Source: Aldrovandia affinis
Lineage: Eukaryota; Chordata; Actinopteri; Notacanthiformes; Halosauridae
Reading direction: 5' to 3'
NCBI GenBank assembly: GCA_029706075.1
Contig: JAINUG010000052.1
Coordinates: 1,135,998-1,199,997, forward strand
DNA: 64,000 nt
Shown: one piece after another, positions 14,301 through 23,300 of the stretch
How the letters are laid out: every line of letters starts with the position of its first letter
Numbering within the stretch: the first letter of the stretch is position 1
Program-made: the position numbers and the translations under genes
Notes under the pieces: generated by a model
The model's input: the letters and a program-made list of their open reading frames with translations, nothing else
Databases searched by the model: none
Told to the model about the DNA's origin: nothing

Positions 14301-17300
14301 ACCGCCCATCCTCTGGGTCAAGCCAATTCCCCGAGGTCGGCAATGATCTGCCTCCTCCGAGACAGAACTCGTCCACCCTGGGACGCCCTTTCGCTTCTCG
14401 GCAAGCTCGTGCCGGCTCTCCCTCCCCCTGGGGCGGACAGCCAATCACCACCCCTGAACCGGGCTCCCAACCAGAGCCGGGCTGGCGCAGTCAAGATTCG
14501 AACCACGGCCGCAGTGGACAACCTGCATTCTGGGCGAGTGCTTTGACCATTACACCAAGGACCCAGACCTGGGATTTTTTTAATGCCATCTGCAGGTAGA
14601 TAGGTAGATTTACCTGGAGTCACTGGGCTGTCTGGAGTAACTGCTCCGTGTGAGGCTTCCATCAGAGTAGCTGTAGCTTTTGTTACGGAAACAGTAAAAC
14701 GTTTTTTTAAATGCATTTGGTGTAGCCGAATTAGCAATTTAGCAACCAGTTCTACAGACATTAAAGCAACCAAGTAATATTTGCATACCCAAGATAACAA
14801 TTTTGATGACAATTGTATTTCCCAAGTGGTTTAAAAAAAGCTGCAATTATATGTGCTTATCATAACAGATCGGCAAAGGCACAAACAGGCGAGAAAGAAA
14901 TCCAATAAAAATAGCTTTACCTGGGCTCAGTGCTTATCGAATACGAGCTGGTTTTTGTTGATGGTGAATAGTCGCTGCTGTAGGTTCTGGTGCTGGTCCT
15001 GATTTGAATGAGAGACGGAGCACAGACAGTTAGAGGGACAAAGGTTCACTTTCTTTCATCGAATTCACCTTCAAAGTCTGACATTAATGGTACTAACCTG
15101 GTGGTGGTGGTGGTGGAAGAGGGAGATGACACCGTATATGACTTGCCGTAATCCCTAACCATGAGAAAAACAAACCCAGAGGTCAGTTCAGGATATCAAA
15201 TGGCACTGATGATGTTCACGAAACCGAAGCGCCCGTCAAAGCATGCGTGGACCAACCCGCTGCTCCTTTCCACTCTGAAGTCGACCAGCTGAGCCGTGCG
15301 GCCATCAACACTGGCGTTTCTCCAGCTGGCACAAACTGATTGTAAGTGCCCGATCGACCGGAGGAGATGCCAGCATGTGGCCAGGCAGGGAATGTCCTTG
15401 CCAACCAAAACCCTCCCTCCCTTTGCACCACTATAGTCAACTCTGCACCACCCTGCAGTGCTGTGGGACACAGCTAGCACTGGCATGGTCAGGATTCAAG
15501 TCCAGACCATGGGGTATATCGGTGCAGCTAGATCAACGCCACCCGACAGCCCAATAACACGTGATATTCATATAAATAGATGAGTGATATGTGATATTGA
15601 AGCGATAAAATCTCTACTTTAGTCACATTGTTGTTTAATGTACTCTCACCTGTCGGGGGTGGAGTACGCGGTGCGCGTCGACTTTGTAGTGAGGGTATCG
15701 GAAAGAGAATCCAAGGGCCTGCAAACAGAAAGAGGGGAAAAAAACAAACTTCAACTGTGAGTTGAAAGAGGGGTGACTCTTCTTTGATAAATTAAATAAG
15801 ATCAGTTAAGTTAGCATGTCAGATGTTAGAAGGGAGCCAATGTAAAGAAAGTCATCTCTAATTTGTATATTTGTCTGATTTAAATATTAATTATGAAATT
15901 ATTCAGATGGTGAGTTAACCGGGGGCTATAGATTGTAAAAAGCTATTGCAGACTATACAAGGCCTCAACAGAGCCTGTATCAAACTCACCAATCATTTTC
16001 ACTGTCCTTGGTGGTCGTCACTGTGGTCACTTCAGTTGTTTTAGGGCTGAAGATATATTTGAAAGACTTTAGATGTTATACCAACAGTTCAAATACCCTG
16101 CATTTCACTAAAGACGCTAAGTATGAAGGACACTGAGAAAGTAACGGCCTACAATTTCCCACAGGAAAACAATTTCACTTTCGGTGCTGTAAGATTTATC
16201 CTTCAAACCCGTGCTGCTTGCCATTTCAGGATCTGCGACATTGCTGGTTTTTAAGGTCTACTCTTCCTGTGCAGCTGGTACAAGCGAATGGCAGGTGCCT
16301 GATCAATAACAAGAGTTTCTAGTACAAGGTGAGACGGGGAATACCGCTGCCATCTGAAACCCTCCCTCCCTGGGTGACACTATAGACAATTATGCACATG
16401 CCTTGTAGAGCTGCCAGGCACAGTTAGCACCAGTATGGTCAGGATTCAACACCAGACCATGTGGCGTGTCACTGCAAAAAGCTTTAGTGCTGTAGCTGGT
16501 GGTGCCACCGATAGCCAAGTAGCATGTGATATTAATATGTGGTGTAGACATGAGAAATGTGCGATCTTAAAGTGATGATATCTCTACCTCAGCGCATCAT
16601 TTTGAAATGTAACCTAACCTTTTAGGGGTGGAGTACACAGTGTGTGTTGGCCTTGTGATCAGGGTATCAGAAAGAGAATCCAAAGGCCTGCAGACAGAGA
16701 GAGAGAGATAAACAAGCTTTGGTTAATTCAGAATGTTTTTGTCGGCAAACAACACTCTCTGACTGTCTTTTGAGGAGAATTAATCGTCAAGCCTTTTAGG
16801 TTTTACGAGTTGATGCAGGGGTGACTCTTATTTGAGAAAGTAAGATCAAGAGTCAAGTTGGCATGTTAGATGTTAGAAGGGATCAAATGTAAAGAAATTG
16901 ATGTCTGAGGGTGGATTTGTAAATGTGTTGAATTTGTTAAACACACATTATGAAATTATTCAGATGGTGAGTTATTCGGGGCTATAGATTGTAAAAAGCT
17001 ATTATAGATTGTAAAAAGCTATTATAGATTGTAAAAAGCTATTGCAGACTATACAAGGCCTCAACAGAGCCTGTATCAAACTCACCAATCTTTTTCACTG
17101 TCCTTGGTGGTCGTCACTGTGGTCACTTCAGTTGTTTTAGGGCTGAAGATATATTTGAAAGACTTTAGATGTTATACCAACAGTTCAAATACCCTGCATT
17201 TCACTAAAGACGTTAAGTATGAAGGACACTGAGAAAGTAACGGCCTACAACTTCCCACAGGAAAACAATTTCACTTTCGGTGCTGTGAGATTTATCCTTC

Positions 17301-20300: not shown

Positions 20301-23300
20301 GTCGTCACTGTGGTCACTTCAGTTGTCTTAGGGCTGGAGACACTTGAAGTTCTGAATAAAGGTCAAGAAAAAAAATCAGAGTCATGTGCGATATTAAAGT
20401 GATGATATCTCTACTTCAGCGCATCGTTTTGAAATGTAACCTGACCTTTTAGAGGGGGAGTACACAGTGTATGTTGGCTTTGTGATGAGGTCATCAGAAA
20501 GAGAATCCAAAGCCCTGTCAGCAGAAGGAGAGATAAAAAAAGTTAGCTCAATTAAAAATGTTCTGGTCGGCAAGCAACACTTTCCGCCTTTCTTTTGAGG
20601 AGAATGAATCATCAAGCCTTTTTTGTTTTATTAGTTTTGTTTTAACAGTAAAACTGGTGGGCAACTCTTATTTCGACCCATCTTTTGCAATTGAATTTAA
20701 CTTAATTGCGAAAGATTTGAAAGGTTATTTTAATTTAAGGTTAAATTAAAATAACAAAACTTTTCACTAAAGAGAATAAGTATGAGGGTCACCAAGAGGC
20801 CCAACAATTTCCCCTCTCTAACACCCTTTAAGGACACAATTTCACTTTTCAGAGCTGTAAGATTTCAGGGTAAGATTTAATAATAATAATAATATACGCC
20901 ATTTAGCAGACGCTTTTATCCAAAGCGATAACCTTCAAATGCGACCTTACCCCTTGCTGCTTGTCACTTCAGGATCTGTTGCATCGTTTGCTTTTGACGG
21001 CTTAAGGGGCAGCGCGCTGGGCTTCCTTTAGAGAAATTAAAACCAGACACAGTTCACGTGAGTAACCCCAAAGAGATTAAAAAGGGCTGACAGTGGTAGA
21101 TAGCTCTGGTTCAAACACAACTGCCTGGACGTAACACTGATGTGCCTCAAGAGTGGCTCTGCAGGAGAGCGAAAGCTCAGCGCTCGAACGAGAGAGAGGG
21201 GAACCAGTCCCCTGCCTCCTTCCCTGCAAGCAGCACATTATGACATCAGACGATGACTGCAGGGGGACGGCGCCAAGCCATGGGGGGACTCCCGCATGGA
21301 TCAGTGTGCTGAGCGGAGGAGGAACAGAGCCCTGAGCGAGTTCCCAGTCCCGGCGGACAGCTGAGCATGCTGGGAAAAAGCCAGGCAAGCAGGATAGGGA
21401 GGATGAGAGCCCGATTATAGCTGATGCAGCGGTATGTTGGAGTACTAGATATGCTTATACTTCAGAAGGTAGAAGGAACACATTTTCTGCTCTTTAATAA
21501 AAGCATTTTGGATGGAAATGGGGGAAGCCTGGTTTAAAGCATGAAAATCGCAACATATTATTATACTTTTGCCTTTCAAGATACAATTATTTTGGTATGT
21601 AGTGTGCGAATGGTTAATACACACACATATATACACACATATATATATAGATAGATAGATAGATAGATGGATGGATGGATAGATATACAGGTAACTGCCC
21701 AAATAAAGGAAACACTTGAGTAAATGATTCTGATTCCCCACTCGCCCCACCTGCTCTTAAATAGGCTTAGTTTCTGCCTGGCTCAGGTGGGACTCGTGAG
21801 GCAATCACCCAATCACAATCACTCACTCACATTCTCACACAGACACCCAATCAGCCAATTGACTTCCATATAAATTGACTGATTGACACCAATTAAATAA
21901 TAATGACATCAATTATGGCCTTTGGAGCAACCTTCCAGGAGACAGTTCACTCTCACACCCTGTGAGAGTGCCAAACCTGCCCCCGGAAAGTCTCACTGCC
22001 CCAAAGGCCTCCACAACATGTAAAATACAGGCAACCATGCCACTCCCACGTGGCCGAGACCGACGCCCTCCACAGGGAGATTCTGGAGCGGCGACAGCGT
22101 TTTCCATCACCATCAACAAAACAACAAATCATGGAATTTCTTATGGAAGAATGGTGTTGCATCCCTCCAATAGATCTCCAGACTCTTGTAGAATCTATGC
22201 CAAAGCGCATTGAAGCTGTTCTAGTAGCTCATGGTGGCCCAACGTCCTATTAAGACACTTTACGTTGGTGTTTTCCTTTATTTTGGCAGTATGATCCATA
22301 ACCAATAATATATTTTTGCTATTTTCATTCGCAGTGGAGACTTACACTTTGTTGCCGGCTGACTTCACGTCCGAGAAGACCCGTTCGGTAAAGGTCTCGG
22401 TCTTACCAGGACGTTTTGTGATTGGAGTCCTAGGTACAAACGCACAGTGAAGAATGGATGTTCATTAAAAAATATATATATAATAATATAATATATGCCA
22501 TTTAGCAGACACTTAACAACACTTAGCAGACACAAGCAACTTACAGTAGTGAATGCATGTATTTTTCAGTATAAGTGAACCCAATAGGAATCAAACCCAC
22601 AACCTAAGCGTTGTCAATGTCATGCTCTACCTACAGAGCCACACTAAATTATGATATTGGTTCAGAATTATATTTTGTGAAGAGTTAATTTACAATGTAA
22701 TACAATCATTTTGTATTGTATTGTATGTATACGTATTATACTGTTTTGTATGTATATAAATGTAAATACAATATATTGTATTGTATGTATAAGTATACAA
22801 CAGCTCTTTCATGTTGTATACTTAATTATAACCTATAACATGTTTTTTTCTTTCTTGCTGACCTGTACATGAAGCGTGTTAGTAGTTAATGTAATACACT
22901 GTGTTTAAGCTCCATGCAGTGTAAAATAAATACTGCTATCATACAATTTTTTTTAAATAATATATATGCTTGATGATAATGCCTGAAATGAGAAATAAAT
23001 ATCACAATGATACAAAAATAGATATTACATTTACATTTCATATTTTGGCATTTAGCAGATGCTCTTATCTAGAACGACTTACAAGATGTTCATTATTAAT
23101 ATTAATATTATATGCAATATTAATTGCATATAATGTATTTTTTGTATCTTTCCTTACATTTCCTAACATTTTAAACCAGGTGTGTAGCAGCATGAAAACA
23201 GCAATAATAAGAAGCAAGACCACATTAGGACAAATTAGCTTTCTCAGTACTTATTTTATTTGTTTCCTCTTTTTTCTCCCAATTTGGTGACCAATTGTAC

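What the first reader, a model, noticed from the sequence alone, without database searches (positions are those of the whole stretch)
15924..20520. Recent tandem amplification of a sciellin exon pair, introns included
Four full units and one partial copy of about 1.1 kb each add exons A (57 or 54 bases) and B (69 bases). Seen directly: exon and intron copies are nearly identical, splice sites are retained and the pair adds 42 codons in phase. Sciellin is known as a repeat protein with short repeats. Inference: fish sciellin length is being changed by unequal crossover right now, so the array may be copy-number variable between individuals and act as a rapidly evolving skin or mucosal barrier protein.
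Basis: partly seen in the sequence, partly recalled or inferred. Interest (0 to 1): 0.78.

Follow-up and report, generated by a model that had tools for sequence, protein, structure and literature searches.

The report
Growing exon array in fish sciellin
In a deep-sea halosaur, a surface-barrier gene has recently been lengthened by copying a two-exon block several times in a row, an ordinary kind of change that relatives may repeat with different blocks; one copy is out of frame in this assembly, possibly by a sequencing error.

Summary
The array is real in this assembly: four tandem units (1,096, 1,098, 1,061, 1,035 bp) plus a fifth exon A at about 15924-20340, in a minus-strand sciellin gene. 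The window encodes 594 of 600 residues of an Aldrovandia affinis protein (P0001) exactly. Units differ by 0.39-1.42% substitutions.

Corrections. Exon B of the 5'-most unit (19866-19935) is 70 nt, a frameshift ending in a stop, with six small indels private to unit 4 within about 160 bp. Units 3 and 4 differ by 4 substitutions and 13 indels, units 1 and 2 by 15 and 2 (post hoc Fisher p=0.0004). Consensus error is my preferred reading; a broken exon is not excluded. P0001 skips that exon pair. Each long intron carries a decayed third exon, and diverged B copies flank the array, so it grew from an older duplication.

Predicted proteins suggest lineage-specific amplification: 36 of 163 listed relatives (isoforms included) carry near-identical internal repeats, with different units in halosaur, eels, gar and bowfin. 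Copy-number polymorphism and splicing are untested.

The parts
15924..20340 (-). young tandem array: four units (anchors 15948, 17044, 18142, 19203) and a fifth exon A; gene order runs right to left; edges approximate
20446..20514 (-). exon B0, 69 nt, diverged B copy upstream of the array
20280..20333 (-). exon A5, 54 nt as cut here; the deposited protein uses a longer form, 72 nt in the scan (to 20351)
19866..19935 (-). exon B4, 70 nt, frameshifted as assembled; absent from the deposited protein
19728..19888 (.). approximate extent (computed from the pairwise gaps) of six small indels private to unit 4, suspected consensus errors; two of them lie in exon B4
19245..19298 (-). exon A4, 54 nt; absent from the deposited protein
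18813..18881 (-). exon B3, 69 nt
18184..18240 (-). exon A3, 57 nt
17715..17783 (-). exon B2, 69 nt
17086..17142 (-). exon A2, 57 nt
16619..16687 (-). exon B1, 69 nt
15990..16046 (-). exon A1, 57 nt
15650..15718 (-). exon B-last, 69 nt, diverged B copy downstream of the array
20950..21024 (-). segment of exon K (residues 194-218 of P0001), intact, upstream of the array
16208..16259 (-). decayed copy of exon K in the long intron of unit 1; sister copies at 17304-17355, 18402-18450, 19460-19508
   Evidence: 73-79% identity; the neighbouring stretch 20762-20865 also matches all four units at 66%
16983..17043 (.). 20-bp minisatellite, three copies, at a unit junction; a second array lies at 18081-18141
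12117..12225 (-). first exon of the C-terminal LIM-like domain
11494..11596 (-). second exon of the LIM-like domain
11495..33862 (-). extent of the sciellin coding segments matched by P0001; the segment at 33824-33862 holds its first 13 residues, and its last five residues were not placed

Best explanation
This is the sciellin gene of Aldrovandia affinis. Its Ser/Thr-rich middle has been lengthened by recent tandem duplication of a block holding exon A, exon B and a dead copy of exon K. Mechanism (inferred): misaligned recombination between older, diverged A-B copies made the first young unit, and unequal crossover or slippage then added further units. Because the exons ahead of the LIM part begin and end in the same phase, an added or skipped exon leaves the frame intact, so the array is tolerated. 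A full unit adds 42 residues with four lysines and no glutamine, lengthening a probably flexible spacer ahead of the LIM domain rather than adding a new domain. Shown: the units, their identity, splice borders, phases, the decayed exon and the gene. Inferred: the crossover mechanism, the age, flexibility, expression and the barrier role.
For: 594 of 600 residues of A. affinis P0001 are encoded exactly, in gene order. Units are 1.0-1.1 kb and 0.39-1.42% different, the closest pair being adjacent (U3-U4). Of 22 exons ahead of the LIM exons that I cut are multiples of three; two more read by eye are 90 and 75 nt. The scan listed only multiples of three, so this count leans on it, but P0001 uses the same segments. 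Diverged B copies flank the array (84-87% for the B0 region and 69-71% for the B-last region against the units), and a decayed exon K lies in all four units with the same missing stretch. The predicted Albula relative has two A-B pairs. Other blocks repeat in eels (68 residues), gar (23) and bowfin (30).
Against: No reads, transcripts or second individual were available. The deposited protein is a prediction, very probably from the same assembly, so it is not independent. One B exon is frameshifted as assembled, and the indels in units 3 and 4 show that the local consensus may be unreliable, so the exact unit number is less certain. A search with a 129-residue query for short relatives such as transcript fragments gave 103 candidates, none with E of 0.001 or less.
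Confidence: 0.85

Rival explanations
1. Assembly artefact: unit number or sequence is wrong because reads through the 1.1-kb repeats were mis-joined or poorly polished.
For: U3-U4 differ by 4 substitutions and 13 indels, U1-U2 by 15 and 2 (p=0.0004, and 0.0004 to 0.0008 when minisatellite, shared 3-bp and G-run indels are set aside alike in both pairs; chosen after seeing the data). Many are 1-2 bp in short homopolymer or dinucleotide runs, and two fall in exon B4.
Against: The units are distinguishable: substitutions private to single units, a 3-bp deletion shared by A4 and A5, minisatellite lengths. A false duplication of one copy would not give that. Diverged flanking copies show that duplication is old here.
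Confidence: 0.12
2. The B4 frameshift is real: the 5'-most young unit is already dying or is always skipped, so the array gains and loses exons together.
For: The deposited model skips B4 and A4 and stays in frame. Exon death has happened in the same units before (decayed exon K).
Against: Six small indels private to unit 4 crowd into about 160 bp, four of them outside the exon, while the whole unit differs from U3 by 4 substitutions; this suits consensus error better than decay.
Confidence: 0.3
3. The units are old and kept alike by gene conversion rather than recently duplicated.
For: Introns and exons are alike, as conversion of whole units would give; U2 is closer to U3 (10 of 1,059) than to U1 (15 of 1,096), which a simple stepwise order need not give.
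Against: Only two A-B pairs are seen in the predicted Albula protein, and the flanking B copies were not homogenised.
Confidence: 0.2

Closest known systems
Sciellin (SCEL) of vertebrates
   Same: C-terminal LIM-like part and short central repeats; near relatives are named sciellin by NCBI; a SLAIN1-like exon lies downstream as in people (recalled)
   Different: the repeated block is an A-B exon pair of 42 residues made recently in this lineage, not the roughly 20-residue repeats that I recall for human sciellin
Involucrin repeat region
   Different: involucrin repeats lie inside one exon and are glutamine-rich (recalled); here introns are copied along and a unit has no glutamine
Anguilla sciellin repeats
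   Same: tandem repeat of homologous A and B peptides at an offset of 68 residues, 89-96% identity in five listed isoforms of two species
   Different: the eel unit also contains the following peptide and is 42% identical to the halosaur unit, so it probably arose separately

Membership tests
sciellin | LIM domain at the C-terminus | tested here: inconclusive
   Pfam LIM E=0.0018, 18.9 bits, below the curated cut-off of 22.9; solved LIM proteins match at E=0.00023 and above; the residues resemble the C-termini of named sciellins (by eye)
sciellin | overall relation to named sciellins | tested here: met
   Megalops sciellin E=5.8e-88, Anguilla sciellin isoforms 6.1e-87 to 5.4e-70; in a search with the eel protein, ZNF185-named proteins rank far lower, best 3.2e-27
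sciellin | transglutaminase substrate in a cornified envelope | not testable with these tools
   biochemical; the unit has 4 Lys and 0 Gln
recent tandem exon-block duplication | copies head to tail, alike in introns and exons | tested here: met
recent tandem exon-block duplication | every copied exon keeps the frame | tested here: not met
   B4 is 70 nt; the other seven exons of the four units are multiples of three. If B4 is a consensus error the feature is met
copy-number polymorphic coding array | unit number differs between individuals | not testable with these tools
   one assembly only

The most novel reading that the evidence does not exclude
Sciellin's phase-matched exons make its middle a repeatedly reinvented repeat region: separate ray-finned lineages amplify different exon blocks, and the halosaur array is caught while still changing in number within the species.
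Probability: 0.35. Interest if true: 0.55.

Novelty: new member of a known kind. Interest (0 to 1): 0.35.

Why it matters
It gives a clear snapshot of how a structural barrier protein gains length without new domains: phase-matched exons, an old duplication as seed, and recent copying. If the comparative pattern holds in genomes, sciellin would be a good test case for how often different exon blocks are amplified independently in one gene. It also warns that gene models across such arrays can drop exons where the consensus is poor.

Tried and rejected
A search of the window's own genome was sent three times and not answered. The 129-residue protein search found nothing. Papers: searches for sciellin with zebrafish (10 listed), with repeats and exon, with transglutaminase, cornified envelope and fish, with evolution and repeat listed no title on sciellin repeat evolution; subscription journals are mostly not held. 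A search on involucrin in primates gave none, one on tandem exon duplication gave 10 of 49 listed, none used, one on involucrin repeat number gave one. I saw passages of PMC11171596, PMC4334901, PMC9692912, PMC10688137 (not used) and PMC8105351, and abstract and section 5 of PMC5968573; its RNA came from muscle, and supplements could not be opened. No title on the A. affinis genome was among the 9 listed or the 8 of 23,207 listed, so the sequencing method is unknown to me. Substitution counts include bases misaligned beside indels; one search supersedes them. In one search exon B4 was cut at wrong coordinates; one search replaces it. The second p-value dropped the G-run indel in one pair only; one search replaces it. 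A Pfam hit to Plus-3 is below its cut-off and falls on the Thr/Lys-rich repeats, so I rejected it. Exon against intron substitutions (1-2 of 122-126 against 3-14 of 907-970) are too few to test selection. Structure prediction was not run, since the repeats look disordered.

Full report
What it is. The gene runs on the minus strand. A search with a 500-residue concatenation of predicted exons found, as best hit, a 600-residue hypothetical protein of Aldrovandia affinis (P0001, E=1.5e-277), then Albula, Megalops sciellin and Anguilla sciellins (674 proteins with E at most 0.001 among the 7,976 candidates scored, best 120 listed). Mapped back, 594 of its 600 residues are encoded exactly, in order, between 33862 and 11495; residue 51 and the last five were not placed. 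The window is therefore A. affinis or something nearly identical; that species is an elopomorph of the order Notacanthiformes. The C-terminal LIM match in Pfam is below its cut-off, but the residues resemble the C-termini of named sciellins. An ORF at 8411-9088 on the same strand looks like the first exon of SLAIN1, the neighbour of SCEL in people; both points are recalled, and Pfam did not confirm it.

The array. Four units with anchors 15948, 17044, 18142 and 19203 are 1,096, 1,098, 1,061 and 1,035 bp; a fifth exon A follows. Indel-aware substitutions and indel events are U1-U2 15 of 1,096 and 2; U1-U3 15 of 1,058 and 12; U1-U4 13 of 1,030 and 13; U2-U3 10 of 1,059 and 12; U2-U4 11 of 1,033 and 10; U3-U4 4 of 1,029 and 13. 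At recalled fish neutral rates of several substitutions per site per 10^9 years the divergence means roughly 10^5 to 10^6 years, a rough figure that gene conversion would make too young.

Frame. Of 22 exons ahead of the LIM exons that I cut, 21 are multiples of three and read in one phase; two more, read by eye, are 90 and 75 nt. The scan that proposed many of them listed only multiples of three, but the deposited protein uses the same segments. A block can therefore be added or skipped in frame. The exception is B4 (19866-19935), 70 nt. Read as assembled, it leads to a stop at the start of the next exon; skipping B4, or B4 with A4, keeps the frame. P0001 skips both.

Is B4 broken or misread? 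Both units 3 and 4 are rich in indels. Of the 13 between them, six small ones are private to unit 4 and lie within about 160 bp (19728-19888), two of them in exon B4; one is a 3-bp deletion in exon A4 shared with A5; the rest lie towards the 3' end of unit 3 on the plus strand, minisatellite included. Against U1-U2 (15 substitutions, 2 indels) the contrast gives Fisher p=0.0004; with minisatellite and shared indels set aside, and the G-run kept or dropped in both pairs, p is 0.0008 or 0.0004. I chose this pair after seeing the cluster, and indels within a pair need not be independent, so the p-values are descriptive. I prefer consensus error, but no reads were available.

Older layers. The region of B0 matches the unit B regions at 84-87%, that of B-last at 69-71%. 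The unit's long intron matches the surroundings of exon K: 20762-20865 at 66% and 20951-21002 at 73-79%, in all four units. The copies share a missing stretch, and by eye have no open frame like that of K. So I infer that a block with K, A and B was duplicated long ago, that K died in the copy, and that the young units were made from that copy. Two unit junctions hold a 20-bp minisatellite in three copies.

Comparison. I scanned all 163 proteins listed by the two productive searches (120 of 674, 43 further ones) for internal repeats of at least 20 residues at 80% identity: 36 of 163 had them, against 0 of 815 block-shuffled controls. Several of the 36 are isoforms of one gene, the lists are ranked by similarity, and some are named ZNF185 or hypothetical, so 36 is not a count of species or events; 127 had none, Albula and Megalops among them. 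Units: halosaur 42 residues, both Anguilla species 68, gar 23, bowfin 30, sturgeon 28 or 44, Melanotaenia 66, Fundulus 77, catfishes 34-35. The halosaur and eel units are 42% identical, while copies within each are 97% and 89-96% alike. The gar unit aligns with P0001 from residue 142, outside the A-B block. The bowfin and sturgeon units align only weakly (scores 40-43). Units of some percomorphs, and of two catfishes, are 50-73% alike between species, so those may share an older duplication. Most are gene predictions; those of Melanotaenia and Lucifuga are 100% identical copies and could be assembly errors.

Function. A unit of 42 residues has 4 Lys, 0 Gln and 17 Ser or Thr. If sciellin is cross-linked by transglutaminase in fish as recalled for mammals, the array adds amine donors and spacer length but no acyl donors. 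Human sciellin is listed in tables of a paper on disordered keratinocyte proteins (passages of PMC9692912, whose column heads I did not see). Fish expression: zebrafish corneal epithelium, tilapia gill cysts, passages only.

Verdict. A real, recent exon-block amplification in a known gene, in frame but for one unit in doubt. Ordinary in kind; the recurrence with different blocks is the more interesting lead, and it rests on predicted proteins.

Noticed in passing
8411-9088 (-): ORF resembling the first exon of SLAIN1, on the same strand and downstream of sciellin, as in people (both recalled).
   Followed up: partly
30229-30747 (-): Long simple repeat read as a KQAS repeat ORF; probably a microsatellite, not a gene.
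   Followed up: no
4781-5890 (-) and 61117-62080 (+): ORF pieces that look like Tc1/mariner-type transposases (recalled resemblance).
   Followed up: no
30831-33182 (+) and 62121-63691 (-): ORF pieces that look like a Gypsy-type retrotransposon and a LINE reverse transcriptase (recalled resemblance).
   Followed up: no
2860-3200 and 46341-46679: Dispersed repeat pair, 345 bp at 94% identity.
   Followed up: no
P0061, P0107, P0118: Sciellins of gar, bowfin and sturgeon repeat other short blocks (23, 30 and 28 residues).
   Followed up: partly
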